64,000 nucleotides of DNA. Source: Fodinibius roseus (lineage in GTDB: Bacteria; Bacteroidota; Rhodothermia; Balneolales; Balneolaceae). Below the pieces are notes generated by a model that was not told the DNA's origin, ran no database searches, and was given only the letters and a program-made list of their open reading frames with translations. Position numbers and translations under genes: made by a program. Of this stretch, positions 22,187 through 37,741 are shown piece by piece; the stretch's first letter is position 1, and the number at the start of each line of letters is the position of its first letter. The DNA lies in contig NZ_FQUS01000011.1 of NCBI RefSeq assembly GCF_900129315.1, forward strand, positions 1 through 64,000, read 5' to 3'.

Positions 22187-25100
22187 CTACTCTTTCACAA
22201 TCATCGTGCCCTGCATGGTGCGCCAGTGGCCCGGGAACGTACAGACATACGGGTATTCTCCCGGCTGGTCAGGAGCGGTAAAGGTCAATGTAACGGTATT
22301 ATTGGGATTGACCAGCGAGGTTGCAAAAAGAACTTCGGATATATCAGGCACATAATCCTTTTCTGCGGCATCCGTTTCTCCGGCCATATCATCGGCCGCC
22401 TCTCCTACTTTCTCCAGTGCGCCCGGCTCGGTTATGAGCAGGTTGTGCTGCATGAAATCCGGATTTTCAAAAACAATTTCCACCTTTTCGCCGGCCTGCA
22501 CCGAAAATTCCGATACGTCAAATTGAAGTTTATTCACCACGGCCTTGATGCGGATCGTCTTTGCATTCGATTCGGAACTCTGATCTGAAGCTGTTTGTCC
22601 CCCGGCAGACGATGTGCTGGCGGCCGTTCTATAGCCTGCCGCGTGTTTATTTCCCGCCAGCTTCAGCGCTTCCGCCAGCCACTCGTCCTGCACAACATTG
22701 CTGTCCCTGCTTAGTGCAAAGAGCGCCTGTCCTACCTGCTCAGAAGGATCCATTTCGACCGTGGCTAAAATAGCCGCCAGTTGCGTTCTACCGTTTGGAT
22801 CCTCAAGAACCCCTGATTCCATAATGGCCTGCCGGGCCTCCCCGGTTTGCGGCAGAACCTGAATGGCAGCTTTCCGCACGCCGGCCGCAGGATGCTCGAG
22901 CGCCCCGAGGGCGGTTTCCAGTGCTTCCTCATTGGAACCGTCGAGCGCGTCCAGCCCGTGAATCGTCCACAGGGCGTGCAGGGCTGCGCTGTTCAGGCCG
23001 AGTTCGTCTGTTTCTGTATTCTCGACAAGCCCGTACAGCTCGGGAAGCACATCGGTTTCTCCCCGCTCAACCAGCAGCCGCTGGGCCGTCAATCGCCAGA
23101 ACATGTTGTCATGATTCAACGCGTCTACCAGCGCATCCGGGTCATCTTTACTGAGGCTCATCGATTCACCGGATTCCGCCCCCTTATAAGTGAGCCGGTA
23201 AATACGTCCGTGCTTCCGGTCCCTGTTCGGGTTTACATGGGCATTGCCTTCGCCGGTTTCGGCATCGTATCCGCCTCGCTCTTCCGTGGGCGTCGGGTTG
23301 TGCTGTACAATAAAGTTATACCAGTCGGCGATCCAGAGCGAGCCGTCGGGACCTACTTTGGCCTGAACAGGGGATACCCACTCGTCGTGGGCGGCAAAGA
23401 TGTTCCACCCGTCTTTTTCAGTGAAACCGGCACCATTTTCTTCAATGATCGCCCGGTGCGTCAGTCCCCCGGTCGGCTCACTCACAAAAGCAATGCGATT
23501 CCAGTACTCCTCAGGAAACTGCCGGGCCGTGTAAAACCGGAAGCCGGAGGCCGCGGTAAATCCACCGAATACATCCACCTGCCGGTAGTTGCGGGTGATG
23601 GGATGCATCCCGTAGTGCCCGTCTATTTTCTTTTGGCCCGCGCCCCATTGCTGCCGCCCGGTGCCCACAGGCCCGTCATAGTCCTCGTAATAGCGCTTCG
23701 GGATGCCCATATATACAACGTGCGTGTTGTTGGCCGTGGATCCGAATACGTCGAAGGTTTCGTTGAAGCCCAGTCCCCAGGTATTATTGCTCGTGGTCGT
23801 CAGGTATTCGAAATCGATATCATCAAAATCGGTGGTGAACTTGTAAAATCCCTGGGGAAATTTGACCGAATCGCCGCCCATAACTCCTTCATAGCCGGAA
23901 TAACCGACGGAGCCCCATATCTGATTGTCGAAGCCATACTGGAGGTTGGAGGGACCCGCATGGGTGTCGTAGGTTCCCCAGCCGGAGAGGATCTCTTTCC
24001 GGCTGTCCGCTTGATCATCGCCGTCCGTATCTTTGAGGAACAGGAAATGCGGGGCCTGCGCGACCAGTACGCCGTCATTCACAAAGGTCAGGCCGGTCGG
24101 GATGTTCAGGCTATCGGCAAAGACCGTCACTTTATCGGCCCTGCCATCCTTATCGGTGTCCTCCAGAATTTTTATTTTGTCATCGCCCACGCCCGTTTCG
24201 TTTCGGACGGTATTGGGATAGTCGACCGTTTCTATAACCCAAAGCCGTCCCTTTTCATCCCAGGCCATGTCCACCGGATTAACAATGTCTGGCTCGGCGG
24301 CAAAAAGTTCGAGCTTAAATCCCACCGGCACCTGGATATGTTTTTGCGATTCTTCCGGGGAGAGCGGAAGCTGAAAGCGGGGCGGGGGATCCCGCTCCTC
24401 ATAATTGGGAATGTTGTCCCGCTCCTCATATTGCAGTTTGGGAATGGTTGACGCAAAGGACTTCCAGTTTTCCCGGACCCGATCACTGACCGACCACACA
24501 ATCCCGTTTTTGATCAGCTCCTGGAATCCCGGTTTCGTCCACGTCCGTTCATCGTGTCCGTAGGCCGTATAAAAAACCCTGCCCTCTCCGTGCGTACGCA
24601 CCCAGGTCCATGGTTCCGTATGATCTTCACCTTCCCGTTCCATCAACACCGTGCGGTTTTCGTCGTTATGCCTGGTATGAACGTAGGTTTCATCCCAGGT
24701 TTTAAACTCCTCGAGATCTTCGGTAACGGGATGGTCTCTGTTCACGATCTCCGCTGTAAATGTACCGGTGCCGTGGTCTTCGAATTGAGCGCCGACCAGA
24801 TCCACAAAGTCCCCGGAGTTTCTAAAACAATAACTGGCCGAGTGAACAGGTAAAAAGCCCTTGCCGTTCGCCACAAATTCCAGCAGGGCTTGTTCCTGGG
24901 AGGCGGAAATGCTGTCGTGATTTGCATAAAGGAGGAGCGCATCATACCTCTCTAAATTTTCCTGATTTAAATCCTCCGGGTTTTCGCTGTATGTAAAATT
25001 AATGCCGTTGCCGGCCAGGGCAGAGGCAAGGATGGGAGCATAGGCGGCGCTGTTGTGATGGTCACTGTCGTGCCCGAGAAACAGGACTTCAATTTTGCGG

Positions 25101-25195
25101 GGATGATTATCGGGCTTTTGCTTTTCGGTTGTATCGCATCCAACCGCTGACAAGGCTAAGTAAACAAGTGCAACCCATCCCGTTATTATTTTCAT
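22187..25195 (-). CDS. ThuA domain / membrane-bound sugar-dehydrogenase-like / HEAT / cupredoxin lipoprotein
   Basis: A 1002-residue exported protein. The signal peptide ends in a lipobox SAVGC near residue 20. Order of parts: a ThuA (glutamine-amidotransferase-like) domain at about 35-240 (GHDSDHHNSAAYAPILASAL, PVHSASYCFRNSGDF); a PQQ-type beta-propeller of the putative membrane-bound dehydrogenase family at about 285-665 (WDEKGRLWVIETVDYPN, DGSLWIADWYNFIV); HEAT-like helical repeats at about 690-870; and an azurin-like copper domain at about 905-1002, with Cys985, His990 and Met994 as copper ligands in VCTFPGHWRTM plus a His in FMQHNLL. Probably an electron-transferring carbohydrate oxidation lipoprotein in the periplasm. 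A candidate arabinose-regulon operator lies 39 bp before its start. Confidence 0.87.
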   Translation of the reverse strand: MKIITGWVALVYLALSAVGCDTTEKQKPDNHPRKIEVLFLGHDSDHHNSAAYAPILASALAGNGINFTYSENPEDLNQENLERYDALLLYANHDSISASQEQALLEFVANGKGFLPVHSASYCFRNSGDFVDLVGAQFEDHGTGTFTAEIVNRDHPVTEDLEEFKTWDETYVHTRHNDENRTVLMEREGEDHTEPWTWVRTHGEGRVFYTAYGHDERTWTKPGFQELIKNGIVWSVSDRVRENWKSFASTIPKLQYEERDNIPNYEERDPPPRFQLPLSPEESQKHIQVPVGFKLELFAAEPDIVNPVDMAWDEKGRLWVIETVDYPNTVRNETGVGDDKIKILEDTDKDGRADKVTVFADSLNIPTGLTFVNDGVLVAQAPHFLFLKDTDGDDQADSRKEILSGWGTYDTHAGPSNLQYGFDNQIWGSVGYSGYEGVMGGDSVKFPQGFYKFTTDFDDIDFEYLTTTSNNTWGLGFNETFDVFGSTANNTHVVYMGIPKRYYEDYDGPVGTGRQQWGAGQKKIDGHYGMHPITRNYRQVDVFGGFTAASGFRFYTARQFPEEYWNRIAFVSEPTGGLTHRAIIEENGAGFTEKDGWNIFAAHDEWVSPVQAKVGPDGSLWIADWYNFIVQHNPTPTEERGGYDAETGEGNAHVNPNRDRKHGRIYRLTYKGAESGESMSLSKDDPDALVDALNHDNMFWRLTAQRLLVERGETDVLPELYGLVENTETDELGLNSAALHALWTIHGLDALDGSNEEALETALGALEHPAAGVRKAAIQVLPQTGEARQAIMESGVLEDPNGRTQLAAILATVEMDPSEQVGQALFALSRDSNVVQDEWLAEALKLAGNKHAAGYRTAASTSSAGGQTASDQSSESNAKTIRIKAVVNKLQFDVSEFSVQAGEKVEIVFENPDFMQHNLLITEPGALEKVGEAADDMAGETDAAEKDYVPDISEVLFATSLVNPNNTVTLTFTAPDQPGEYPYVCTFPGHWRTMQGTMIVKE

Positions 25196-25233: not shown

Positions 25234-25252
25234 AAGTGTAATAAATACACTC
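25234..25252. promoter_or_regulatory. Candidate AraR-type operator before the ThuA gene
   Basis: The + strand reads AAGTGT-AATAAAT-ACACTC, a 19-bp inverted repeat with one mismatch. It matches the sites at 25917-25935 (before susC) and 35266-35284 (before araB) in both arm sequence and 7-bp spacing. It lies 39-57 bp upstream of the start codon of the ThuA-domain gene on the minus strand. Confidence 0.5.
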
Positions 25253-25402
25253 AAAAAAGATGGAATATTTTTGAAAATTGCAAAATATTTTTTAATCCTG
25301 CGAAAAAGGGAGAGGAAATGCTATCCGGAGAAGGCGGTTAATACCGGCACGTATGTTGCCGATCATCCCGAATAATATTCTATTCCACAGCACTGACAGT
25401 TA

Positions 25403-25630
25403 TTATTTTTTCTCGTTTTTTGCTGATTTTATCGGATTTCGCAAAGGCCTGCCAAAACCTTCAAAGAATACATTCATCTGATCTCTGCCCCGCAGCCGGA
25501 TATCCGCGCCAAAGGGAAAGGCATCGGCTCCGAGAAAATGAATATGAATCATGCCCGGAATCCGATGTTGCTCATACTTAAAATGATGGTATTCCGGATT
25601 TTCCAGGAAATGGGCACGCCTTTTCGACAC
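25403..25630 (-). pseudogene. C-terminal fragment of an AraD1/GguC-like (FAH-fold) gene
   Basis: The 75-codon frame reads ENPEYHHFKYEQHRIPGMIH, then IHFLGADAFPFGADIRL, and ends near FFEGFGRPLRNPI. I recognise this as the end of the AraD1/GguC branch of the fumarylacetoacetate-hydrolase family, several members of which act in L-arabinose or sugar-acid oxidation. Intact members have about 300 or more residues, so the N-terminal three quarters are missing; no more of it is seen in the upstream 370 bp. A candidate AraR-type operator (25638-25656) lies just before the fragment. An independent small protein is less likely. The assignment is from memory of the family tail. Confidence 0.55.
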
Positions 25631-25637
25631 TGCTTAT

Positions 25638-25656
25638 AAGTGTTTTATGCACAATT
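25638..25656. promoter_or_regulatory. Weaker candidate AraR-type operator
   Basis: AAGTGT-TTTATGC-ACAATT keeps the left arm and the 7-bp spacing of the other sites, with two mismatches in the right arm. It lies 8-26 bp before the AraD1-like fragment on the minus strand. Confidence 0.35.
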
Positions 25657-26010
25657 AACGGGAGATAATTTGCCTGTTTTTCCAAAATAAAGGCTTTGTC
25701 ATGAAATAAATGACTAATGATTTTATTTATTCATCATTAAACTTTTAAATATTTCATAAAAAATAATATTCTATAAATGCTTGGTTAGCAATAGGATATA
25801 GTGATATAAAATTTTTAATTTCCCACTTCATTTCTCCTTCGGAATAATATTTCTGCCCATATTCATCTGTTGTTTAAAATTTCTTGCATAATATTTCTAT
25901 AATTCTTAAAAATAATAAGTGTGTAAAAAACACTTAGAAAGTTGATCGTTTTTCACAGCTGACAAGGGTGGGATACACTTCACTATCACGTCAATCAAAA
26001 TTGGGGATTT
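25657..26010. other. AT-rich leader region of the SusC/SusD transcript
   Basis: No gene is supported. The region is strongly AT-rich and contains an inverted repeat around 25699-25735 (ATGAAATAAA and TTTATTTATTCAT) and the AAGTGT-N7-ACACTT palindrome at 25917-25935. GGGGATTT just before the susC ATG is not a clear Shine-Dalgarno site, as is usual for Bacteroidota-type genes. Confidence 0.4.
25917..25935. promoter_or_regulatory. Candidate AraR-type operator before susC
   Basis: AAGTGT-GTAAAAA-ACACTT is a perfect 6-bp inverted repeat with a 7-bp spacer, 76-94 bp before the susC start codon. It is the best copy of the motif also present before araB and before the ThuA gene. Confidence 0.55.
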
Positions 26011-29000
26011 ATGAAATTACTACGACACAGTAAATACCTGTTGTTGATAGCATTTCTTTTTTGCTTTTCGGCAGCGGGAGTATTTGCACAGCACACGGTG
26101 AGGGGTACGGTTACGGATGCAAGTTCATCTGAATCATTGCCCGGAGTGAATATTCTTGTAAAGGGTACTTCGCAAGGAACGTCGACCAACGCGGATGGGC
26201 ATTATGAATTGCAGGTGTCCTCTTCCTCGGATACGTTGGTTTTTTCTTTTGTGGGATACGAATCGCAGGAAATACCGATTAATGGCAGAGAGGAAATCGA
26301 TGTTAATCTGCAACCTCAGGCTTTTATGGGGGAAGATGTCGTGGTTGTCGGTTACGGCACGCAACAGAAAGTGAATCTCACCGGTTCGGTAGCCTCGGTC
26401 TCGACTGACGAAATGGCGGAAATCCCGGTACCGACGGTGACGCACGCACTGCAGGGAATGGCGCCGGGAATGCAGATTCTGGATGGCGGAGATATGCCGG
26501 GCCATAACCAGCTGGACGTCTTGGTTCGCGGCCAGGGATCCCTGGGACGCGATGCCGATGGAAGTGGTGACGTAGGCAGTGCCGATGCCTCCCGACCGCT
26601 GGTACTGATTGACGGGATCGAAGGGAGTCTCAGTGATGTCGACATAGGGGACGTCGACAACATTTCGGTGCTGAAAGACGCGGCATCGGCGGCGATCTAC
26701 GGTTCACGTGCTGCGAATGGCGTGATTCTGGTCACCACGAAGCGCGGGTCAGCCGGCGATCTGCAGGTCACGTACAACGGGTATATGGGAACCCAGGACA
26801 TTACGGCATGGCCGGAGCGGGTCGACACCGAGACCCATATGCGGCTCGCAAACCTGGCCCGGGAGAATCTCCTGAATTCATGCCTTGACGGTCGCGAGGG
26901 ACAGACGGAAGCGGAGTGCCACGCAAACACGAACTACGCCCCGCGTTACACGGAGGAATATATCCAAAACACACTCGCCGGAGATCAGCCGGACCAGTAC
27001 CCGGATAACGAATTGGTAGATGAAATCTTTAACCGGGCACCGATCCAGGATCATTCGCTTAGAGTGTCCGGCGGGAATACGGCGGCACGTTACTCGCTCT
27101 CCCTCAACTATATGGAAGAGGGGGGATTAATGGCGAATACGGGCACTGACCGGTATGGCATACGCCTCAATACCGATTTCCAGCTGAACGAAGAAATCTC
27201 GGGTGGCCTGGATTTGTCGGCTAATCGCAGTTGGGATACCCGACCGGCGGAGGAATGGGCGTCGAACTTCTACATCGTCCACGACACCCCGCCGACGGTT
27301 AGGACCCGTTTTTCCGACGGAACCTACGGCACAAATTTGTTCGGACGCAGTGCCCTTGCCTCCGCCGAGGTCAGCGGTAACGAACAGCGGGTATTCTGGG
27401 ATGGCACCGTCACCGGTCGCCTTAACTACCGAATAGCGCCATGGGCGGAGATACAGACGCAGGCCTCCTTCGACTACGGCAGTATGGACTGGGAGCTTTT
27501 CCGGACCGATCCTGACCTCATTGAAGAGTATCCCGACGATGGATACTACTGGGGTCCCAGTTACGGTGAGAATCGTACCTACACGGATAAACAAACGACG
27601 CTCCGGGCGCTGATTGACTATGACCACACCTTTATGGAGTATCATAATATTTCTGGTGTAGTCGGATACGAGCAGACCGAGTCCAACTTTGAGGAATTTC
27701 GGGCTTCGCGAGACCAGTTTTATAACAACGATCTACGCCAGCTCGACCTGGGTAACGAAACGAACGACTCGAACGAGGGTTTCGGTAACAGTTGGGCGCT
27801 GCGCTCGATATTCGGGAGGCTCAACTATGAGCTGATGGATCGTTACCTGTTCGAATTCAACGCCCGTTACGACGGATCAAGCCGGTTCGCTGAGGGACAC
27901 AGATACGGTTTCTTTCCATCATTCTCACTCGGCTGGCGGATTACTGAGGAGTCGTTCTTCAACGTCGACTGGGTGGACGAGCTGAAAATTCGCGGATCCT
28001 GGGGGCAGTTGGGTAACCAGGACGTGCCGCTGTACTCGTATTACTCTTCCATCGATCTGAGTATTCCGTATCATATGGGCAATGCCAGTAGTGCACAGTC
28101 CACGGGCGGCGCTGCCACAGCACTCGTCAATGAAGAACTTTCGTGGGAAACGACTACGGTCACCAATATCGGAATCGATGCGGCATTCCTGAACAATCGT
28201 CTGAGCGTGACGGGTGAGTTGTACGAGCGGCGAACCGAGGACATTCTCCTGGCACTTTCGGTTCCCGATATGGTCGGTCTCAACGCACCCTTTCAGAACG
28301 CGGGTATCGTCGAAAACAAGGGCTGGGAGGTACAGGTCGGCTGGCAGGATAATATCGGAGAGGTCAGCTATGGTATCGACTTCAACCTTTCCGACAACCG
28401 GAACGAGGTCATTGATTTGGTCGACACCGGCCCGTATATCGAGGGTGATCTTAACCTTAGTCAAAACGTGATCCAGGAGGGGTCGCCTATCGGCGCGTGG
28501 TACGGCTATGAGACCGAGGGTCTATACAGCTCGTATCAACAAATCGATAGCCACGCGGACGTTCCGGGCGAAGGGGCACGTCTGGGGGATATCATTTTCA
28601 AGGATCAAAACGATGATGGGATTATCAATGATGAGGACCGTGTGGTAATAGGCGATCCCAATCCCCACTATATTTTCGGTGTGAACATCAACGCTGGCTG
28701 GAGAAACTTCGATTTTACGGCGCTCTTGCAAGGTGTGGGTGACAGGGAGCAGTACATAGGTCTTGGATTCGCCCAGGGCCCGGTGTGGGAGAACTACACC
28801 TCTGAGTGGCATAAGGACTACTGGACGCCGGACAACCAGGACGCCCGGCACCCGGCCTACTACTCCAACGCCAACCGGAACTACTACAATATGAATGATT
28901 GGTGGATCCTGGACGGAAGTTTTGTGAAGCTGCGTAATGTACAGCTCGGCTATACGCTGCCTCAGGAGTTGGTCAGCCGCTTAGGTATTCAGCGCCTGCG

Positions 29001-29136
29001 GCTGTATGCAACCGGTAAAAACCTTTGGATGAAAAATAATCTGGGTATCGGCCTGGATCCGGAGTATCCATGGACAACCGGCGACTACTATCCACAGACG
29101 AAGGTGATCAGCTTAGGCGCCAATATCAGCTTCTAA
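26011..29136 (+). CDS. SusC/RagA-family TonB-linked outer-membrane transporter
   Basis: Outer-membrane importer, likely for arabino-oligosaccharides judging from its locus. It has 1041 residues. The signal peptide runs to about residue 27 (CFSAAGVFAQ). A carboxypeptidase-regulatory-like domain follows (about 30-105, GTVTDASSSESLPGVNILVK and SFVGYESQEIPING). The plug domain is at about 120-235 (VVVGYGTQQKVNLTGSVASV, and ASAAIYGSRAANGVILVTTK). The remainder is a 22-strand barrel, ending in the expected aromatic-terminated strand KVISLGANISF. The SusD partner starts 2 bp after its stop. A perfect palindromic operator candidate lies upstream. Confidence 0.95.
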   Translation: MKLLRHSKYLLLIAFLFCFSAAGVFAQHTVRGTVTDASSSESLPGVNILVKGTSQGTSTNADGHYELQVSSSSDTLVFSFVGYESQEIPINGREEIDVNLQPQAFMGEDVVVVGYGTQQKVNLTGSVASVSTDEMAEIPVPTVTHALQGMAPGMQILDGGDMPGHNQLDVLVRGQGSLGRDADGSGDVGSADASRPLVLIDGIEGSLSDVDIGDVDNISVLKDAASAAIYGSRAANGVILVTTKRGSAGDLQVTYNGYMGTQDITAWPERVDTETHMRLANLARENLLNSCLDGREGQTEAECHANTNYAPRYTEEYIQNTLAGDQPDQYPDNELVDEIFNRAPIQDHSLRVSGGNTAARYSLSLNYMEEGGLMANTGTDRYGIRLNTDFQLNEEISGGLDLSANRSWDTRPAEEWASNFYIVHDTPPTVRTRFSDGTYGTNLFGRSALASAEVSGNEQRVFWDGTVTGRLNYRIAPWAEIQTQASFDYGSMDWELFRTDPDLIEEYPDDGYYWGPSYGENRTYTDKQTTLRALIDYDHTFMEYHNISGVVGYEQTESNFEEFRASRDQFYNNDLRQLDLGNETNDSNEGFGNSWALRSIFGRLNYELMDRYLFEFNARYDGSSRFAEGHRYGFFPSFSLGWRITEESFFNVDWVDELKIRGSWGQLGNQDVPLYSYYSSIDLSIPYHMGNASSAQSTGGAATALVNEELSWETTTVTNIGIDAAFLNNRLSVTGELYERRTEDILLALSVPDMVGLNAPFQNAGIVENKGWEVQVGWQDNIGEVSYGIDFNLSDNRNEVIDLVDTGPYIEGDLNLSQNVIQEGSPIGAWYGYETEGLYSSYQQIDSHADVPGEGARLGDIIFKDQNDDGIINDEDRVVIGDPNPHYIFGVNINAGWRNFDFTALLQGVGDREQYIGLGFAQGPVWENYTSEWHKDYWTPDNQDARHPAYYSNANRNYYNMNDWWILDGSFVKLRNVQLGYTLPQELVSRLGIQRLRLYATGKNLWMKNNLGIGLDPEYPWTTGDYYPQTKVISLGANISF

Positions 29137-29137
29137 A

Positions 29138-30931
29138 ATGACCAAGACAATGATTTATAAAAAAAACAAGATTATGATTTATAAGATAACCAAGACAACG
29201 AATGTAGTGCTTTCAAGCATGCTGCTTCTGTGTATCGCTCTTGGAATCACAGGATGTGATGATAATTTTCTGACGACCGTACCGTCGGACAGGGTCTCTT
29301 CAGCGACCTTCTGGTCTAACGAGCGTGACTTCAATACTGCTCTTAACGGCACCTATAACGAGATGACAGGGCGGGACCTTGATCCCCTTTATTTTGACGG
29401 CGCCACCGATATCGGTTATTCACACGCCGACTGGAGGCGCCAGCACGAGTACGTGATGGGGCGTGCCAACGCTCAGTCCGGCTGGTCGGGCGGGTTGTGG
29501 TCCCAGTTGTACACCGGCATCAGCCGCGCCAACGAGATTCTTTTTCAGCTCAATGAGGTAGGCGGTGATGTACTTTCGCAGGAAGCCGCCGACCGGATTC
29601 GCGGGGAAGCCTTGTTTTTACGCGGCTACTTTTACCACGAGTTGCTGTGGATGTTTGGTGAGGTGCCCGTATTTACGAGTGTTCCAACCGTGGAAGAAGC
29701 GCGCAGCGTGAGTCGGTCTTCGCGGGAAGATGTATATACACGGATTACAACAGACCTGTCGGAAGCAGCAGGCCTGCTGCCTACTCGCGCCGAGCTGCCG
29801 TCTTCCGATTACGGTCGCGCCACCAGCGAGGCTGCCGTGGCTTATCATGCACGGACCGCCCTCTACGAAGCAAGCTGGCAGGAGAACCACGAGGACAACA
29901 CATCCCGTGCCAACACCCTATACGGTACTGCAAGAGACATGGCTGCGACTGTTATGAACGACGCCGCATACTCTCACATTACGTTGCATCCCAATTTCCG
30001 GGATCTCTTCACCTATTCAGGTGAGACGAGCAACGAGATCATTTTGGACTACCAGAAGGTATCGGGACAGAATGGATGGCCGGCCTGGTCGGATTTCGCC
30101 CCCAAATCCATGGGTAGTGAGGTCAACATCGCACCGACGCGAGAGCTGGTGGATCGATTTCCGATGGAAGATGGCTTGTCTATCGATGATTCGCCTATGT
30201 ACGATGATTCTCCCCCGGAGATTACCTACAACAACGGCAACCCGGCTGTACAGACGATCGGCATGTATGCTAATCGTGATCCGAGATTCTATGGAACGGT
30301 CTTGTTTCCAGGTGCTCAGTTCAATGGAATCGTCTATAACTCATATCCGTCTTGCAGTGAAACGAATGCACCAGATGGTTATTGCAGTCCAACCGGCGAT
30401 CCGATAGACCAATCGGATTATAACAATACGTACACTGGCTACATCGCCATGAAATATGTGGATCCGCAGGACGAGTCGTCTCCACAAAACAGCGGTCTCA
30501 ATTTCATAAAGATGCGGTACGCCGACGTCCTGCTGATGTACGCAGAGGCAAAGGTCGAACTCGGTGAGCTGGACCAGTCTGTAAACGATGCGGTCCAAGA
30601 GATTCGCGACCGGGTAGATCTGCCCATGCCCCAGGATATTACCACGATGACACAGGAGGAGGCTATAGAATTTGTCCGAAACGAGCGGATCATTGAGCTG
30701 GCCTGGGAGGGTCTCCACCTGGCAGATATCCGCCGATGGAATACCGCTGAAAATGTGCTCAACGGTAATATACACGGGATTGAGATTGCCAATGATCAAA
30801 CTGGTAATAGTTTCAGTAGGTTACAAGGACAGCATACCCGGTCGTTCGATGCACCGCGGGATTACTTGTGGCCCATACCATCAAATGAGCGGGACCTGAA
30901 CGACAACTTGTCACAGAACACGGGATATTAA
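29138..30931 (+). CDS. SusD/RagB-family nutrient-binding outer-membrane lipoprotein
   Basis: Surface lipoprotein that captures glycan for the SusC partner encoded immediately before it. Met13 (base 29174) begins a normal signal peptide that ends in the lipobox GITGC; the first 12 codons are probably not translated or are a variant start. The mature protein opens with DDNFLTTVPSDRVSSATFWS, the typical SusD N-terminus. RGEALFLRGYFYHELLWMFG is the TPR-like region and the C-terminal RNERIIELAWEGLHLADIRR is the RagB/SusD signature. Length of about 585 residues is normal. Ligand not readable; arabinan or arabinoxylan fragments fit the neighbours. Confidence 0.94.
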   Translation: MTKTMIYKKNKIMIYKITKTTNVVLSSMLLLCIALGITGCDDNFLTTVPSDRVSSATFWSNERDFNTALNGTYNEMTGRDLDPLYFDGATDIGYSHADWRRQHEYVMGRANAQSGWSGGLWSQLYTGISRANEILFQLNEVGGDVLSQEAADRIRGEALFLRGYFYHELLWMFGEVPVFTSVPTVEEARSVSRSSREDVYTRITTDLSEAAGLLPTRAELPSSDYGRATSEAAVAYHARTALYEASWQENHEDNTSRANTLYGTARDMAATVMNDAAYSHITLHPNFRDLFTYSGETSNEIILDYQKVSGQNGWPAWSDFAPKSMGSEVNIAPTRELVDRFPMEDGLSIDDSPMYDDSPPEITYNNGNPAVQTIGMYANRDPRFYGTVLFPGAQFNGIVYNSYPSCSETNAPDGYCSPTGDPIDQSDYNNTYTGYIAMKYVDPQDESSPQNSGLNFIKMRYADVLLMYAEAKVELGELDQSVNDAVQEIRDRVDLPMPQDITTMTQEEAIEFVRNERIIELAWEGLHLADIRRWNTAENVLNGNIHGIEIANDQTGNSFSRLQGQHTRSFDAPRDYLWPIPSNERDLNDNLSQNTGY

Positions 30932-30948
30932 AAGCATTGGTAATGCTT
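30932..30948 (+). terminator. Weak hairpin after SusD
   Basis: AAGCATT-GGT-AATGCTT is a perfect 7-bp stem starting 1 bp after the SusD stop, followed by GCTTTATAAAG without a real T-run. It may slow or partly end the susCD transcript or protect its 3' end. Confidence 0.35.
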
Positions 30949-31077
30949 GCTTTATAAAGTGACTTATTAAACAAGGATAAGCTGCCTGCGGGTTATAAGT
31001 GTCTACAGGTAGTTCTAAACAGTAAGATGTATTTTCGAAGTACTACGACAGATATCATCTCCAGTGGAGCTTCATTC

Positions 31078-31423
31078 ATGTCTAAAATACTTTTCATAAT
31101 GAGCCTGGCTGCAGGTATAACCCTGCGCTGTGGCAAGGATTCTGTCGATCCGGACAACAATGGAGTGGGAGCAAATTTTGCTGGAGTCGGTGAAAAATGG
31201 GACGGTTAAGAACCAATCGACGACGGTAGAATATTTAGAGGACGGACAAATGGCCGGCAACCCGGCTGCGTGGGAGCTGCAGGATAAAATATTGAGGATC
31301 AATCGAAATGGCGACATATTGAGGCTTCATCTGCGCCGCGGTTTTGACTGGGAAAGTAACCGACCCACCCTGATATATACCGGTTTGAACGACCAAGAAT
31401 GCTCGGTATGGGGTAAAAAATAA
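31078..31423 (+). pseudogene. Frameshifted small lipoprotein-like gene
   Basis: An ATG at 31078 opens MSKILFIMSLAAGITLRCGK, a signal-peptide-like stretch with Cys at residue 18, and continues to VGEKWDG before a TAA at 31207-31209. In another frame the text carries on as VKNQSTTVEYLEDGQMAGNP, AWELQDKILRINRNGDILRL and finally ECSVWGKK with a stop at 31421-31423. One extra base near 31190-31207 would account for the break. Together this gives a lipoprotein of about 115 residues, perhaps lipocalin-like in style, but I recognise no family. It lies between SusD and the mutarotase in the arabinose locus. Sequencing error and true decay both remain possible. Confidence 0.45.
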
Positions 31424-31589
31424 AGTGAGTTAGGCGGTACCTGGATATATCTTCTCCGGTCAATATGAAACGTGAAAGGACCTTATGGCCCAAGAAGGTA
31501 TCCCATTTTTTTAATGAAAGGGGATCCAGGATTTAGTATCCTTTTGAGGAATCGCTAACATAATTAAAACACAATTAAACAGCTAAATT

Positions 31590-32771
31590 ATGAAAACAGC
31601 ATTATTTCTAAACGGTGGTGGCAGTTATTGGATAGGCGGCATAACGGTTAGCCTGGTTATCCTGCTGATGACGGGGGGATGTGCGGGAGAGGAGTCCGAG
31701 CCGTCCCCTGAAAAGCAGGACACGAAAACCCCTGATCGAATAACCGAAAGGCCGTTCGGTTCGCTCGAAGACGGCCGCCAGGTGCATCTGTATACGCTTG
31801 CCAATGCTCATGGCATGGAGGTCGATATAACCAATTACGGAGGGATTGTCACCGCTATCAGGACGCCGGACAACGAGGGAACTATTGAAAATGTAGCCCT
31901 GGGCTTCGATTCGCTCGATAACTATTTAAGCGGACATCCCAACTTCGGGGCCCTGATCGGCCGCTACGGCAACCGCATTGCCGGTGGCGAATTTGAGCTC
32001 AACGGGGAAACCTATACCCTTGCTCAAAATGATGGTGACAACCACCTGCACGGGGGAGAAGTTGGCTTCGATGATGTGCTCTGGGACGCCACCATTACCC
32101 CGGACAGTACCTTGCGGCTCACCTATGTAAGCGAGGATATGGAAGAGGGATATCCCGGCCGGCTGGATGTGACGGTCATTTATTCCCTGACGGATGATAA
32201 TGAGCTTAAGATTGAGTACAAGGCTACAACGACCAAAGCCACGCCCGTCAACCTCACAAATCACACCTACTTTAATCTTACCGGCGATATGGACAGTACC
32301 ATTCTGGATCATCAGGTGAAGCTCAATGCCGACCAATATACACCAGTGGATGATGAGTTAATTCCTACCGGAGAGATTGCGTCTGTAGAAGGTACGGCAT
32401 TTGATTTTACGGAGTTTCACAGCATTGGAGAACGCATCGATCAGGTAGACGGCAGGGGATACGACCATAATTTTGTGCTGAATCAACCGGCATCCGATTC
32501 CCTGTTTCATGCTGCAACAGTCTATTCCCCGGGAAGCGGGCGGGAGATGAAGGTCTTTACCACCGAGCCGGGCGTACAGTTTTACACCGGCAATTTTTTG
32601 GATGGCACCCTGGAAAGCCCGGGGGGGATTCCTTTTGAGCAACACTCCGGATTTTGTCTTGAGACCCAGCATTTCCCGAATTCACCCAATGAACCCGATT
32701 TCCCTTCTACGATATTAGAGCCCGGAGAAACCTATCTGACCACAACCATTTACCAATTTTCAATCCGATAA
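31590..32771 (+). CDS. Aldose 1-epimerase (mutarotase), predicted lipoprotein
   Basis: Interconverts alpha and beta anomers of aldoses, here probably L-arabinose released outside the cytoplasm. The first 35 residues include a hydrophobic segment and a lipobox-like MTGGCAGEE. Catalytic and binding motifs: FGALIGRYGNRIAGG at about 115, HLHGGEVGFDDVLWDA at about 150, the catalytic-His region LTNHTYFNLTGD at about 221, and the C-terminal catalytic-Glu region GFCLETQHFPNSPN at about 350. The 393-residue length matches extracellular mutarotases. The GH51 gene follows after 13 bp, so the two are probably translated from one mRNA. Confidence 0.93.
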   Translation: MKTALFLNGGGSYWIGGITVSLVILLMTGGCAGEESEPSPEKQDTKTPDRITERPFGSLEDGRQVHLYTLANAHGMEVDITNYGGIVTAIRTPDNEGTIENVALGFDSLDNYLSGHPNFGALIGRYGNRIAGGEFELNGETYTLAQNDGDNHLHGGEVGFDDVLWDATITPDSTLRLTYVSEDMEEGYPGRLDVTVIYSLTDDNELKIEYKATTTKATPVNLTNHTYFNLTGDMDSTILDHQVKLNADQYTPVDDELIPTGEIASVEGTAFDFTEFHSIGERIDQVDGRGYDHNFVLNQPASDSLFHAATVYSPGSGREMKVFTTEPGVQFYTGNFLDGTLESPGGIPFEQHSGFCLETQHFPNSPNEPDFPSTILEPGETYLTTTIYQFSIR

Positions 32772-32784
32772 ATACAACTACACC

Positions 32785-34368
32785 ATGTCATTTTTTAATC
32801 ATCCCCGGATTATTACCATGCGAATGGTCCTCCTGTCCCTGTCCCTGTTCCTTTTTAGTTTCAGCGGTATGATCCCGCTGAAAGCGCAAAATACGATGAC
32901 GATCAATGCCGATCAGCCCCAAAATAAAATCAGCCGCCATATTTACGGGCAGTTTTCAGAACACCTGGGCACCGGCATGTACGGGGGACTCTGGGTAGGG
33001 GAGGATTCCGATATCCCCAACACGGATGGTTTCCGGGATGATGTGGTGGAAGCGCTCAAGGCTCTGGAAATACCGAACCTGCGCTGGCCGGGCGGCTGCT
33101 TTGCGGACGAATACCACTGGAGAGATGGGATCGGTCCCCGTGAAGATCGTCCCACCCGCATCAACACGCACTGGGGCATGGTTGAGGAACATAACGAAGT
33201 GGGCACGCATGAATTCATGCGGCTTACCGAACTGCTCGATACTGAACCCTATATTTCTGCAAACGTAGGGAGCGGCACCCCCGAAGAGATGGCCCACTGG
33301 GTTGAATATATGACCTACGACGGCAACAGCACACTGGCCAACCTGCGCCGGGAAAATGGACAGGAGAAGGCCTGGGACGTCAAGTTCTGGGGCATTGGGA
33401 ATGAGAGCTGGGGTTGCGGCGGTAATATGGAGGCGGGTTATTACGCCGATCTTTACCGCCGTTACGCTACCTTTGCCAAAGACTACAGCGGCAACGAATT
33501 GTATAAAATCGCCAGCGGTTTTTCGGACGACAATTACGGGTGGACGGAGACCGTGGTGGAACAGGCGGGATGGATGATGGATGCGATTTCCCTTCACTAT
33601 TATACCATTCCGACGGGGAACTGGGAACAGAAAGGTCCCTCCAAAGATTTTGGGGAAGGGATGTATTTTGCAGGTCTTAAGCAGGGACTGGCAATGGACG
33701 AGTATGTGTCCCGTCATTCCACGATTATGGACAAATACGATCCGGAAAAACGAATCTCGCTGGCCGTGGATGAGTGGGGAATTTGGACAGACCCGCTTCC
33801 CGATACCAATCCCGGATTTCTGCAGCAGCAAAATTCTGTCCGGGATGCCCTCATCGCATCCACCACCCTGGATATCCTGAACAAGCACAGCGACCGGGTT
33901 CGGCTGGCCAATATTGCACAGACGGTCAATGTACTGCAGGCGATGATCCTGACCGATGGCAACCGGATGTTGAAAACACCAACCTACCATGTGTTCGATT
34001 TTTACAGGGTCCACCACGATGCGATGTTATTGCCGCTGCACCTGGATGCGGCCAACTATACGTATGAGGGTGAACACATCCCGGCTATCAGTGCCACCGC
34101 CTCCAGGGATGAAGCGGGGACGATCCATCTTACGGTGACCAACCTGCACGCCACCGACCCCCAGGAGGTTACGGTTAATATTCTGGGGTCAGATGCTGAT
34201 GAGATAAGCGAGAGCCGTATTCTGTCAGCAGACGCTGTGGATGCCGTTAACACCTTTGATAATCCCGACAGGGTGGCCCCCCAAAGCTTTGAAGACTATA
34301 CGCTGAATGATGACGAGCTGACGTTGCGCTTACCCTCAAAATCTGTTATAGTCATAGGGGTAGAATAA
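32785..34368 (+). CDS. GH51 alpha-L-arabinofuranosidase, secreted
   Basis: Releases terminal L-arabinofuranose from arabinan, arabinoxylan or oligosaccharides. Met12 (base 32818) starts a signal peptide ending near PLKAQ, so the enzyme is exported to the periplasm or surface, whereas many GH51 enzymes are cytoplasmic. Conserved parts: HIYGQFSEHLGTGMYGGLW at about 53, NLRWPGGCFADEYHW at about 98, the acid/base Glu in WGIGNESWGCGG at about 207, and the nucleophile Glu in LAVDEWGIW at about 333. The C-terminal beta domain reads TVNILGSDADEISESRIL. Length about 515 residues after start choice, as expected. It links the SusC/D import pair with the arabinose catabolic genes. Confidence 0.93.
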   Translation: MSFFNHPRIITMRMVLLSLSLFLFSFSGMIPLKAQNTMTINADQPQNKISRHIYGQFSEHLGTGMYGGLWVGEDSDIPNTDGFRDDVVEALKALEIPNLRWPGGCFADEYHWRDGIGPREDRPTRINTHWGMVEEHNEVGTHEFMRLTELLDTEPYISANVGSGTPEEMAHWVEYMTYDGNSTLANLRRENGQEKAWDVKFWGIGNESWGCGGNMEAGYYADLYRRYATFAKDYSGNELYKIASGFSDDNYGWTETVVEQAGWMMDAISLHYYTIPTGNWEQKGPSKDFGEGMYFAGLKQGLAMDEYVSRHSTIMDKYDPEKRISLAVDEWGIWTDPLPDTNPGFLQQQNSVRDALIASTTLDILNKHSDRVRLANIAQTVNVLQAMILTDGNRMLKTPTYHVFDFYRVHHDAMLLPLHLDAANYTYEGEHIPAISATASRDEAGTIHLTVTNLHATDPQEVTVNILGSDADEISESRILSADAVDAVNTFDNPDRVAPQSFEDYTLNDDELTLRLPSKSVIVIGVE

Positions 34369-34420
34369 ACAAAGGATTAGCCCGGTTTTAATATCCCGAA
34401 TAGGGGAAACAAACTGCAAA

Positions 34421-35215
34421 ATGGACCGTGTGCTGTACTGGAGCTTCCAGATTGCAGGGCATGAGGATTCCGGGTTAGTAGAAAAAAGATATAAGAACAG
34501 CCATATTTTTATGAAAAATCACTATGAAGAACACGATCGAATCCTGGTGGCCCTTGATTGCATCATTTTCGGATTTGATCGGAGCGGACTAAAACTGCTG
34601 CTCATCAAAAGAGACTTCGAACCCGAGAAAGGGAACTGGTCGCTGATGGGCGGGTTCCTGAAACGGGAGGAAAGTCTTGACGAGGCTGCAGACCGTATTC
34701 TGCATAAGCTGACCGGGCTTAAAAATGTCTATCTCGAGCAGCTCTATGGATTTGGTGAGGTAGACCGCGATCCGGTGGAGCGAACGGTGTCCATCGCTTA
34801 TTATGCGCTTATCAATATTCAGGAGCATGACAAGGAGCTCATGGATAAATACGGGGCGCGCTGGTTTCCGATTAATGAATTGCCCGACCTTATTTTCGAT
34901 CACCCTCAAATGGTTGAAGCCGCTAAGTCCCGCCTGCAGTACCGGGCTTCTCATGAACCGGTGGGATTCGAGCTGCTGCCTGAGAAATTTACCATGCCTG
35001 AGCTTCAGATTTTATACGAAGCCATCTACGAAACGGAGCTGGACAAGCGAAATTTCCGCCGGCGTATCCTGTCGATGGATGTGCTGGTAAAAACGGATGA
35101 GAAACAGAAGAAATACTCTAAAAAAGGGGCCTACTTCTATAAATTCAATGAGGAGAAGTACCGTGCAAAAATCAATAATGGGGATAACTTGGTTTTCAAA
35201 CCGATAAAACTTTAA
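34421..35215 (+). CDS. Nudix-type transcriptional regulator, AraR-like
   Basis: Probably the L-arabinose-responsive repressor of this locus. Met31 (base 34511) gives MKNHYEEHDRILVALDCIIF, the usual start of this family; the 30 codons before it have no counterpart. A Nudix-like domain follows (KGNWSLMGGFLKREESLDEA), where the Nudix box is degenerate: ADRILHKLTGL lacks the REVxEExGxE residues needed for hydrolysis. The C-terminal half is a winged helix (TMPELQILYEAIYETELDKR, then NFRRRILSMDVLVKTDE). In Bacteroides thetaiotaomicron a Nudix-related AraR controls arabinose genes. It is encoded between the glycosidase and araB, with candidate operators nearby. Confidence 0.9.
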   Translation: MDRVLYWSFQIAGHEDSGLVEKRYKNSHIFMKNHYEEHDRILVALDCIIFGFDRSGLKLLLIKRDFEPEKGNWSLMGGFLKREESLDEAADRILHKLTGLKNVYLEQLYGFGEVDRDPVERTVSIAYYALINIQEHDKELMDKYGARWFPINELPDLIFDHPQMVEAAKSRLQYRASHEPVGFELLPEKFTMPELQILYEAIYETELDKRNFRRRILSMDVLVKTDEKQKKYSKKGAYFYKFNEEKYRAKINNGDNLVFKPIKL

Positions 35216-35265
35216 GGAACGCGATTTTGAATTCATTCCTGTAATTGTATATTGCCTTTTTTTAA

Positions 35266-35284
35266 AAGCGTTATTATAACACTT
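35266..35284. promoter_or_regulatory. Candidate AraR-type operator before araB
   Basis: AAGCGT-TATTATA-ACACTT is a 19-bp inverted repeat with one mismatch, 39-57 bp before the araB start. A possible promoter overlaps it: TTGCCT at 35252-35257 and TATAAC at 35275-35280 with a 17-bp spacer, so a bound repressor would cover the -10 element. The promoter reading is tentative because this lineage may use other consensus sequences. Confidence 0.5.
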
Positions 35285-35322: not shown

Positions 35323-37044
35323 ATGCCTATGAATATGAAGAAGAATGATAACTGCGTCATCGGGATCGACTACGGCACGGATTCGGTGCGATCGGTGCTG
35401 GTAGATGCCGGGGGCAACCAGCTTGCGGAAGCGGTCCACCGCTATAGCCGCTGGTCCGAGGGCCTGTACTGCGACAGCACCCAAAATCAGTTCAGGCACC
35501 ATCCCCTCGATTATCTGGAGGGACTGGAGCATACGCTGAGGGATGTGCTTTCCCGGGTGCCGGAGCAAACGGCCGGTCGGGTAAAAGGTATTGCCGTTGA
35601 TACCACCGGTTCTACGCCGGTAGCCGTGGATCAAAGCGGAACCCCCCTGGCCCTGAAGGAGAAGTTCGCTGACAATCCCAATGCGATGTTTATCTTGTGG
35701 AAAGACCATACGGCGGTCGGGGAGGCCAGTGAGATCACCGGGCTTGCCAGATCCTGGGACGGTCCGGACTATACCAAATATGTGGGCGGTATCTATTCCT
35801 CGGAATGGTTCTGGGCCAAGATGTTGCATACGATCCGGAATGATGAAAGCGTGCGGGAGGCTGCTTATTCGTGGGTGGAACTGTGCGACTGGATTCCCTA
35901 TGAGCTGACCGGCAAAACGGATGTGCACGCCATGAAACGCAGCCGCTGTGCGGCGGGACATAAAGCCATGTGGAACGAAGAATTCGACGGCCTGCCCAGC
36001 CAGGAGTTTCTAAACCGTCTCGACCCGCTGCTGGAGGGGATCCGGGAGCGGCTGTATCAGCAGACCTTTACGTCCGACTGTCCGGCCGGAACACTCTCTT
36101 CCGAGTGGGCCCGAAAACTGGGCCTTTCGGAGGAGGTTGTTGTTGGGGTCGGAGCTTTTGACGCTCACATGGGCGCTGTGGGAGGAGAGATCGAACCGTA
36201 TTATTTGAGCCGCGTCATGGGCACTTCGACCTGCGACATTTTGGTGGCGCCCTATGACGACCTCGGGGACAACCTGGTGGAGGGAATTTGCGGGCAGGTG
36301 GATGGGTCGGTGATCCCGGGATTGGTGGGACTTGAAGCGGGACAGTCGGCTTTCGGTGATGTGTATGCCTGGTTCAGGGATCTGATTAGCGATCCGGCCG
36401 AATCGATTATCAGTGAAAGCGAGCTGCTGACTGAGGAACAGAAGGCGGCGCTGGCTGAGGAGCTGCATGAGAAGCTGCTGGTAATCCTGTCTGAGAAAGC
36501 CTCCGGCCTGGAGGATGTTGATACCGGCATTGTGGCACTGGATTGGCTGAACGGCCGTCGAACGCCGGATGCCAATCAATGGCTCAAAGGAGCGATCGAA
36601 GGACTGGATCTGGGTACGGATGCACCGCGTATATTTAAAGCCCTGGTGGAGGCGACCTGCTTTGGGGCAAGAGCCATTGTAGAGCGATTTCAGCAGGAAG
36701 GTGTTCGTATCGATGGTATCATCGGACTGGGCGGGGTCGCTAAAAAATCGCCCTATGTCATGCAGACGCTGGCCAATATCCTGGGGATGCCCATCAAGAT
36801 AGTTAAATCCGAGCAGGCTTGCGCGATGGGGGCGGCTATGTTTGCCGCCACTGCGGCGGGACTTTTTGAGGATGTCCGGGAGGCTATGGCGTCGATGGGC
36901 AATGGATTCGGGAAGATCTACGAGCCCGACGAGGAGAAAGCAGCCGTTTATGATGGCTTGTATGATCAGTACCGGTCACTGGGCGAAGTTGTGGAAGAGC
37001 GGCTTGAGCTGAACCAAACCATTAAACAGGAGCAGAATGAGTGA
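35323..37044 (+). CDS. araB: Ribulokinase
   Basis: Phosphorylates L-ribulose to L-ribulose 5-phosphate in the cytoplasm. The FGGY-kinase N-terminus is CVIGIDYGTDSVRSVLVDAG, and the ribulokinase-specific TGSTPVAVDQSGTPLAL lies at about 95. Substrate-side motifs include MFILWKDHTAV (about 126) and GIYSSEWFWAKMLH (about 160). The C-terminal ATP-binding region contains FGARAIVERFQQEGVRIDGI and GLGGVAKKSPYVMQTLAN, with AMGAAMFAATAAG near the end. Length 573 residues is normal for AraB. araD begins 8 bp before its stop codon, so the two are translationally coupled. Confidence 0.95.
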   Translation: MPMNMKKNDNCVIGIDYGTDSVRSVLVDAGGNQLAEAVHRYSRWSEGLYCDSTQNQFRHHPLDYLEGLEHTLRDVLSRVPEQTAGRVKGIAVDTTGSTPVAVDQSGTPLALKEKFADNPNAMFILWKDHTAVGEASEITGLARSWDGPDYTKYVGGIYSSEWFWAKMLHTIRNDESVREAAYSWVELCDWIPYELTGKTDVHAMKRSRCAAGHKAMWNEEFDGLPSQEFLNRLDPLLEGIRERLYQQTFTSDCPAGTLSSEWARKLGLSEEVVVGVGAFDAHMGAVGGEIEPYYLSRVMGTSTCDILVAPYDDLGDNLVEGICGQVDGSVIPGLVGLEAGQSAFGDVYAWFRDLISDPAESIISESELLTEEQKAALAEELHEKLLVILSEKASGLEDVDTGIVALDWLNGRRTPDANQWLKGAIEGLDLGTDAPRIFKALVEATCFGARAIVERFQQEGVRIDGIIGLGGVAKKSPYVMQTLANILGMPIKIVKSEQACAMGAAMFAATAAGLFEDVREAMASMGNGFGKIYEPDEEKAAVYDGLYDQYRSLGEVVEERLELNQTIKQEQNE

Positions 37045-37741
37045 TTTTAAGGAGTTAAAACAGGTTGCCTATGAGAGTAATATGCGGCTTCCCGAGCTCA
37101 ACCTGGTGTTATTTACATTTGGAAATGCCAGTGCTGCAGACCGGGACCGGAGCGTATTTGCTATAAAGCCGAGTGGCGTACCCTACGAGGAGCTGCGGGC
37201 CGATGATATGGTGATCGTTGATTTCGACGGCAAGGTGGTGGAGGGGGGGATGCGTCCCTCTTCGGATACCGAAACACATGCGGTGCTGTACAGGCAGTGG
37301 GACGGTATCGGTGGGATCGCACATACTCACTCTACGTACGGAACAGCCTGGGCCCAGACACAGCGGGACATTCCTATCCTGGGAACCACCCATGCCGACC
37401 ATTTGACAGAGGACATTCCCTGCGCCCCACCGATGAGCGATGAAATGATCGAGGGCGATTATGAAAGGCAAACCGGCCACCAAATTATTGATGCCTTTGA
37501 CAGCCGGCAGCTCTCCTATGAGGAAGTGGAGATGATACTCGTAGCGAATCATGCACCTTTCACGTGGGGAAAAACGGCGGAAAAGGCCGTATATAACAGT
37601 GCTGTCTTAGAGGAGGTGGCCAAAATGGCGTACATCACCCTTCAGATTCATCCCGATGCCCCGCGGTTAAAGGAACCGCTCATTAACAAACACTGGGAGC
37701 GTAAACACGGCGACAGCGCTTACTACGGGCAGGAAAAGTAA
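37037..37741 (+). CDS. araD: L-ribulose-5-phosphate 4-epimerase
   Basis: Converts L-ribulose 5-phosphate to D-xylulose 5-phosphate by a metal-dependent retro-aldol mechanism, the last step of the arabinose pathway. Class II aldolase features: TFGNASAADRDRSVFAIKPS at about 29, the zinc ligands in GIAHTHSTYGTAWAQ at about 95, the Glu-like region LGTTHADHL at about 116, and the third His in LVANHAPFTWGKTA at about 171. Length 234 residues is standard. The gene overlaps araB by 8 bp and is followed after 207 bp by araA. Confidence 0.95.
   Translation: MSDFKELKQVAYESNMRLPELNLVLFTFGNASAADRDRSVFAIKPSGVPYEELRADDMVIVDFDGKVVEGGMRPSSDTETHAVLYRQWDGIGGIAHTHSTYGTAWAQTQRDIPILGTTHADHLTEDIPCAPPMSDEMIEGDYERQTGHQIIDAFDSRQLSYEEVEMILVANHAPFTWGKTAEKAVYNSAVLEEVAKMAYITLQIHPDAPRLKEPLINKHWERKHGDSAYYGQEK

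What the first reader, a model, noticed from the sequence alone, without database searches (positions are those of the whole stretch)
25234..35284. A 19-bp palindrome AAGTGT-N7-ACACTT marks a putative arabinose regulon
Sites at 25234-25252 (before the ThuA gene), 25917-25935 (before susC, perfect) and 35266-35284 (before araB) share arms and spacing; a weaker one at 25638-25656 precedes the AraD1-like fragment. At araB the site overlaps a possible -10 element. The Nudix-type AraR-like regulator encoded at 34511-35215 is the obvious candidate to bind it.
Basis: partly seen in the sequence, partly recalled or inferred. Interest (0 to 1): 0.65.

Follow-up and report, generated by a model that had tools for sequence, protein, structure and literature searches.

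The report
Arabinose-switch operators in a salt-loving bacterium
Four copies of a short mirror-image DNA sequence mark genes for taking up and burning the plant sugar arabinose in a salt-loving bacterium; they match the docking site of a sugar-sensing switch protein already known from gut bacteria, so this is a new branch of a known control system rather than a new one.

Summary
In detail: all four palindromes lie at the stated coordinates. AAGTGT-N7-ACACTT is the published operator type of the Nudix-fold repressor AraR of Bacteroides thetaiotaomicron. The protein at 34511-35215 is 57% identical to it, keeps its three arabinose-contact residues and is the only NrtR-type hit in the genome. With at most one mismatch the palindrome occurs in 21 of 41 AraR loci but 2 of 39 loci of other NrtR proteins; the exact one in 7 of 7 araR-positive and 0 of 5 araR-negative genomes of the genus. 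Sites precede orthologous thuA, susC and araB genes. One correction: the weak site (25638) lies beside a gene remnant, not a gene start, and is better read as an auxiliary susC operator about 280 bp upstream of the main one, a spacing repeated in one related genome. Additions: an AraR regulon in Balneolota, a ThuA/DUF7133 protein as target, and a likely code, Lys179 with A before GTGT and Arg179 with T. Binding, induction and looping are inferred. New member of a known kind.

The parts
25234..25252 (.). AraR operator of the divergent thuA gene (AAGTGTAATAAATACACTC)
   Evidence: 39 bp before thuA; thuA of G011 and G015 has a one-mismatch site 56 and 52 bp before the start
25279..25283 (-). TTGCA element, probable promoter element of thuA
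   Evidence: 31 bp upstream of the operator; promoter role inferred
25638..25656 (.). probable auxiliary operator of susC, 279 bp upstream of the main one (AAGTGT-N7-ACAATT)
   Evidence: two susC copies in G015 have the same arms at 281 and 277 bp; role inferred
25884..25888 (+). TTGCA element, probable promoter element of susC
   Evidence: 33 bp upstream of the operator; promoter role inferred
25917..25935 (.). main susC operator, exact palindrome
   Evidence: exact sites 34 and 84 bp before susC in G011, 73 and 74 bp before two susC genes in G015
35266..35284 (.). araB operator (AAGCGTTATTATAACACTT)
   Evidence: sites with 1-2 mismatches 55-68 bp before araB in five of six other araR-bearing genomes of the genus (none in G016)
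22187..25195 (-). ThuA - DUF7133 - cupredoxin protein (predicted regulon member)
   Evidence: Pfam; homologs with upstream operators
26011..29136 (+). SusC/RagA outer-membrane transporter
29138..30931 (+). SusD-family lipoprotein
31590..32771 (+). aldose 1-epimerase (AraM-like mutarotase)
32785..34368 (+). alpha-L-arabinofuranosidase (only the C-terminal domain passes the Pfam cut-off)
34511..35215 (+). AraR, Nudix-fold NrtR-type regulator
35323..37044 (+). AraB ribulokinase
37037..37741 (+). AraD L-ribulose-5-phosphate 4-epimerase
37949..39352 (+). AraA L-arabinose isomerase
39704..41458 (+). sodium:solute symporter, probable arabinose importer
   Evidence: substrate inferred

Best explanation
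The palindromes are operators of the AraR encoded in the same cluster. Without arabinose an AraR dimer sits on each, its two recognition helices reading the GTGT half-sites, at or just downstream of the promoter, and keeps thuA, the susC-susD-araM-abf-araR unit and araB-araD-araA (and perhaps the symporter) off. L-arabinose binds the catalytically dead Nudix domain, the winged-helix domains turn and the dimer lets go. araR lies in the susC unit, so it is probably autoregulated. The weak site at 25638 most likely helps repress susC as a second, distant operator (possibly by a DNA loop). Shown here: the sites, gene content, orthology, residues, conservation. Inferred: binding, repression, arabinose as inducer, operon limits, looping.
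For: Regulator: 125 of 219 aligned residues identical to BtAraR (E 3.2e-83); the only NrtR_WHD hit in the genome; R34, R86, H131 and K179, R180, N181, K204 identical. Operator: same arms and 7-bp spacing as the BT0365 site that BtAraR shifts (PMC4666351 sections 7 and 12; GTGT contacts). Conservation: sites with at most 1 mismatch in 21 of 41 AraR loci against 2 of 39 other NrtR loci; spacing 7 gives 26 sites, spacings 3-6 and 8-12 give 0-3 each; 24 of the 26 are intergenic by ORF calling. Exact palindrome in 7 of 7 araR+ and 0 of 5 araR- genomes of the genus, 14 of 20 and 11 of 72 in the family. Sites before araM, araB, abf, susC, thuA, GH43 genes. TTGCA 25-50 bp upstream of 18 of 24 chosen operators (mononucleotide shuffles: mean 0.5, maximum 4). 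Within the AraR clade the operator tracks residue 179.
Against: At most 1 mismatch the whole genome shows 10 sites against 8 control. 20 of 41 AraR loci lack such a site in the DNA held, some on short contigs, and in the second set 18 of 36 Lys179 loci lack GTGT-N7-ACAC within about 4 kb. Of the six DNA-contact residues two differ by conservative changes (K184R, R205K). The araB site has one altered GTGT half (GCGT) and no TTGCA upstream. The two conservation tests share genomes and related species, so they are not independent. No expression or binding data were seen for this organism.
Confidence: 0.9

Rival explanations
1. The palindrome belongs to another transcription factor that happens to control sugar genes, and the neighbouring AraR binds elsewhere.
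For: No binding data; 11 of 72 araR-negative family genomes hold an exact palindrome; two own-genome intergenic sites precede a SusC of another locus and a DeoR-type regulator.
Against: In araR-negative genomes the 13 exact sites do not exceed the control (17); in araR-positive ones there are 32 against 6. Same arms and spacing as a site shifted by BtAraR. The operator letter follows residue 179 of AraR.
Confidence: 0.05
2. The weak site at 25638 is a chance match or a leftover beside the decayed AraD1-like gene, with no role.
For: Right arm degenerate (ACAATT); it lies at the edge of a gene remnant; G011 has its second operator 50 bp away, not 280; the susC genes of G017 and G065 show no second site in 400 bp.
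Against: Two susC copies of G015 have identical arms at 281 and 277 bp from the main operator, with only 12 to 25 of 60 identical bases in each flank; no site arose in 3000 Markov copies. The two G015 copies are paralogs and may be one event.
Confidence: 0.25
3. AraR acts here as an activator, or the operators serve both roles.
For: Some sites lie far upstream of their gene (162-200 bp before araM or abf).
Against: BtAraR is released by arabinose (PMC4666351 section 12); 14 of 24 chosen operators lie 28-34 bp downstream of a TTGCA, a place suited to blocking initiation if TTGCA is the upstream promoter element.
Confidence: 0.05

Closest known systems
AraR regulon of Bacteroides thetaiotaomicron (BT0354; PMC4666351; PDB 5BS6, 5DD4, 5DDG, 5DEQ)
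   Same: Nudix plus winged-helix regulator; GTGT-N7-ACAC operator with AAGTGT/ACACTT arms; araM, araB, araD, araA, sugar importer, abf and susCD targets; araR inside the regulated cluster
   Different: Balneolota host; the 3-bp or 42-nt tandem pairs described there are not seen in the window, instead pairs 50 to about 280 bp apart (start to start) before some susC genes; thuA as a target; K184R and R205K in the DNA-binding domain
Other NrtR-type regulators of Bacteroidota (the 39 loci at 34-41% identity to BtAraR; whether they are XylR was not tested)
   Same: domain family; GTGT-N7-ACAC in 11 of 39 loci, 9 of the 11 shortly before the regulator's own gene
   Different: T instead of A before GTGT in 11 of 11; position 34 is not Arg in any of 39 and position 36 is a gap
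NrtR of Shewanella oneidensis (3GZ5/3GZ6; the link of these entries to SoNrtR is recalled)
   Same: family and domain order
   Different: E 1.2e-27 against 3.2e-83 for AraR; NrtR controls NAD metabolism and senses ADP-ribose (PMC4666351)

Membership tests
AraR (NrtR family, arabinose branch) | Nudix domain followed by NrtR winged helix | tested here: met
   NUDIX 41 bits (cut-off 21.1), NrtR_WHD 94.9 (27), AraR_C 42.1 (23.8)
AraR (NrtR family, arabinose branch) | closer to BtAraR than to other solved NrtR proteins | tested here: met
   3.2e-83 against 1.2e-27; 125 of 219. NCBIfam's only NrtR-type model, ADPR-responsive repressor, scores 145.7 bits, below its cut-off of 400
AraR (NrtR family, arabinose branch) | arabinose contacts R34, R86, H131 | tested here: met
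   all three identical; also Y5, F36, G47, G48, F49, F129; V92 is T
AraR (NrtR family, arabinose branch) | impaired Nudix catalytic box | tested here: met
   RILHKL where REUXEE is expected (three Glu replaced)
AraR (NrtR family, arabinose branch) | DNA contacts K179, R180, N181, K184, K204, R205 | tested here: inconclusive
   four identical, K184R and R205K conservative; both letters also occur in AraR-clade loci that carry the same operator
AraR (NrtR family, arabinose branch) | GTGT-N7-ACAC operators before arabinose genes | tested here: met
   (two of the window's four sites have both GTGT halves intact); published sites
AraR (NrtR family, arabinose branch) | release from DNA by L-arabinose | not testable with these tools
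   needs gel shift or reporter

The most novel reading that the evidence does not exclude
AraR proteins carry a readable one-residue specificity code. Where the recognition helix has Lys at BtAraR position 179 (it contacts the first G of GTGT), the base before GTGT is A; where it has Arg, that base is T (TTGTGT-N7-ACACAA type); with other residues the exact GTGT-N7-ACAC was not found (0 of 14 loci). A likely reason (recalled, not tested) is that an arginine reading a G packs against the methyl group of a preceding T. In Fodinibius the Lys-type operator is used in widely spaced pairs that may loop the susC promoter.
Probability: 0.55. Interest if true: 0.5.

Novelty: new member of a known kind. 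Interest (0 to 1): 0.4.

Why it matters
It extends an experimentally known sugar switch from gut Bacteroides to halophilic Balneolota, links an uncharacterised ThuA/DUF7133 protein to arabinose metabolism, and supplies a natural series of AraR proteins and operators in which one amino acid appears to set one base of the target, which can be tested directly by gel shift.

Tried and rejected
Regulation of an AraD1 (GguC) gene by the 25638 site: rejected, only the C-terminal end of the gene remains. A site before araM, abf, araR, araA or the symporter in the window: best scores 6 to 9 of 12, so these genes most likely depend on the susC and araB operators. Own-genome sites inside open reading frames (L002, L007, L008, L010): taken as chance. 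The C23 site before another SusC and the C39 site before a DeoR-type regulator were left open. AraR proteins with His (1 locus) or Pro-Gly (3 loci) at 179-180 or Asp, Asn, Thr, Glu at 179 (10 loci): no exact GTGT-N7-ACAC; one of them, L040, has a one-mismatch AAGTGT-N7-ACACTT before its symporter; no other motif was established. Plain alignment of the araR-araB gap was too divergent to use; the best site per gap was used instead.

Papers: of PMC4666351 I read sections 7, 8, 11, 12, 14 and 15 and passages; of PMC3878776 and PMC5507952 passages only; of all others only search listings. The impression that a Balneolota AraR regulon, the ThuA target and the residue-179 link are not in print rests on the held library only, through; the lists showed 15 of 38, 10 of 83 and 10 of 1,018 papers, so it is not a proof of absence.

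Choices that shape the counts: the 24 operators were picked by me (auxiliary, distal and doubtful sites left out). In the alignment one of 41 rows (L047) was misread; I put it in the Arg179 group for and confirmed the residue only. In one search, 65 matches were listed; the 16 from the window's own family were left out and the other 49 fetched. Two of the 20 araR-bearing family genomes (G025, G067) have only a part or two pieces of araR.
Full report
Observation. One is exact (25917-25935), three have one mismatch. With up to two mismatches the window holds no more than these four, against a shuffle mean of 1.42; 6 of 100 shuffles reach four, so the window count alone is weak. The clustering is what stands out: of 10 sites with at most one mismatch in the 5.08-Mb genome (reversed control 8), four lie in about 10 kb of one locus, and four of the remaining six lie inside open reading frames.

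Setting. The regulator's closest relatives in a named collection are those of Fodinibius/Aliifodinibius species (84-88% identity), family Balneolaceae, phylum Balneolota in the NCBI taxonomy. Around the sites lie ThuA-DUF7133-cupredoxin (minus strand), SusC, SusD, aldose 1-epimerase, an arabinofuranosidase, the regulator, ribulokinase AraB, AraD, AraA and a sodium:solute symporter: an arabinose uptake and breakdown cluster.

The regulator. The protein at 34511-35215 has a Nudix domain and an NrtR-type winged helix, matches B. thetaiotaomicron AraR at E 3.2e-83, with 125 of 219 aligned residues identical, and is the only NrtR_WHD hit in the genome. The three arabinose-binding residues named in PMC4666351 (R34, R86, H131) and the DNA contacts K179, R180, N181 and K204 are identical; K184 and R205 are Arg and Lys. 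Three catalytic Glu of the Nudix box are replaced.

The motif is known. In PMC4666351 the BT0365 oligonucleotide contains AAGTGT-AAAAAAG-ACACTT, the same arms and spacing, and BtAraR shifts it; the crystal structure defines the GTGT half-site. The finding is therefore the AraR operator in a new lineage; that paper found AraR orthologs only in Bacteroidetes.

Footprinting. I fetched 80 loci encoding relatives of the regulator, the best 80 of 248: 41 AraR-like (48-88% identity to the window protein) and 39 other NrtR proteins (36-41%). Sites with at most one mismatch occur in 21 of 41 against 2 of 39 loci; with the same arms at other spacings (3-6, 8-12) there are 0-3 sites per spacing in the 41 loci, at spacing 7 there are 26. 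Of the 26, 24 are intergenic; the other two overlap the longest-frame start of araB or abf by about 35 bp. In the family (92 genomes) araR was found in 20; the exact palindrome occurs in 14 of these 20 (32 sites, control 6) and in 11 of the other 72 (13 sites, control 17); in the genus in 7 of 7 and 0 of 5. The genomes are related and some are in both tests, so the p-values overstate independence.

Targets. Orthologous genes carry sites: thuA in G011 and G015 (56 and 52 bp before the start), susC in both (34 and 84 bp; 73 and 74 bp). Before araB, sites with 1-2 mismatches lie 55-68 bp upstream in G009, G011, G013, G015 and G017; G016 has none there (best 8 of 12) but an exact one before araM. 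In relatives further sites precede araM, abf and GH43 glycosidase genes (GH43 by Pfam in L144, L154 and L158), the known kind of AraR target. ThuA-DUF7133 homologs occur in 14 of 92 family genomes (18 matches); 7 of the 10 araR-positive genomes among them have a site with at most one mismatch upstream of one, none of the 4 araR-negative ones (Fisher p 0.07). Four of the seven are only 48-52% identical to the window protein.

Promoter geometry. A TTGCA lies 25-50 bp upstream of 18 of 24 operators chosen (mononucleotide-shuffle mean 0.5, maximum 4), 28-34 bp upstream in 14 of them, but not of the window's araB site nor of four of the five other araB sites in the set. I read it as the upstream promoter element of this group (inference); the operator would then cover the start of transcription.

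The weak site. 25638 lies at the edge of a remnant of an AraD1 (GguC) gene, profile positions 253-323 of 329, so it does not precede a gene start. It lies 279 bp upstream of the main susC operator. In G015 two susC genes have a site with identical arms (AAGTGT/ACAATT) 281 and 277 bp upstream of theirs, while each flank shares only 12 to 25 of 60 bases. Other susC genes have second sites 50, 98 or 130 bp away, and those of G017 and G065 show none in 400 bp. I infer a second, auxiliary operator; the two G015 copies are paralogs, so the repeated spacing may be one event.

A specificity code. Among the AraR-like loci, sites with at most one mismatch are found with Lys179 in 20 of 28 and with other residues in 1 of 12, or 1 of 13 with L047. 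For exact GTGT-N7-ACAC in intergenic DNA, the preceding base is A in 17 of 18 hits for Lys179 (16 of 28 loci with a hit) and T in 10 of 11 hits for Arg179 (9 of 9 loci). The Arg179 pattern was first seen in these same loci, so it needs outside tests. The 39 control loci, 33 with Arg179 and 6 with Pro179, give T in 11 of 11 hits. In a second set of 49 loci from other families of the phylum, sharing no contig length, Lys179 gave A in 16 of 19 hits (18 of 36 loci had a hit; four of these hits are one identical sequence in one genus), Arg179 T in 2 of 2 hits (2 of 3 loci), other residues no hit in 10 loci. Thr204 does not explain it, since L025, L029 and L205 have Thr204 with Lys179 and an A-type site. 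Shared ancestry is not excluded as a partial cause.

Verdict. The kind of system is known; the lineage, the ThuA target, the distant operator pair and the residue-base link are additions.

Noticed in passing
window 25409-25621 (-): C-terminal remnant of an AraD1/GguC-type gene (profile positions 253-323 of 329); no copy above the family cut-off in the genome.
   Followed up: partly
window 30932-31589: About 660 bp between susD and araM with only short frames and no operator; possibly a decayed gene.
   Followed up: no
G000:C23:24535-24553 (L137:8536): One-mismatch palindrome 129 bp before a second SusC/SusD pair outside the ara locus.
   Followed up: partly
G000:C39:24561-24579 (L138:6562): One-mismatch palindrome 35 bp before a DeoR-family regulator.
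   Followed up: partly
G067:C4:406738-407434 and G025:C4:607526-607861: araR matches in two overlapping pieces in G067 and only the C-terminal half in G025, suggesting decay of the regulator.
   Followed up: no
L052, L054, L055, L056, L058, L074, L076, L079, L080: Other NrtR-type regulators have TGTGT-N7-ACACA 19-90 bp before their own gene, a probable autoregulatory operator.
   Followed up: partly
L195-L198, L202 (Asp179) and L201, L208, L218 (Asn179): AraR-like proteins with Asp or Asn at position 179 have no exact GTGT-N7-ACAC in the intergenic DNA held, about 4 kb either side; their operator is unknown.
   Followed up: no
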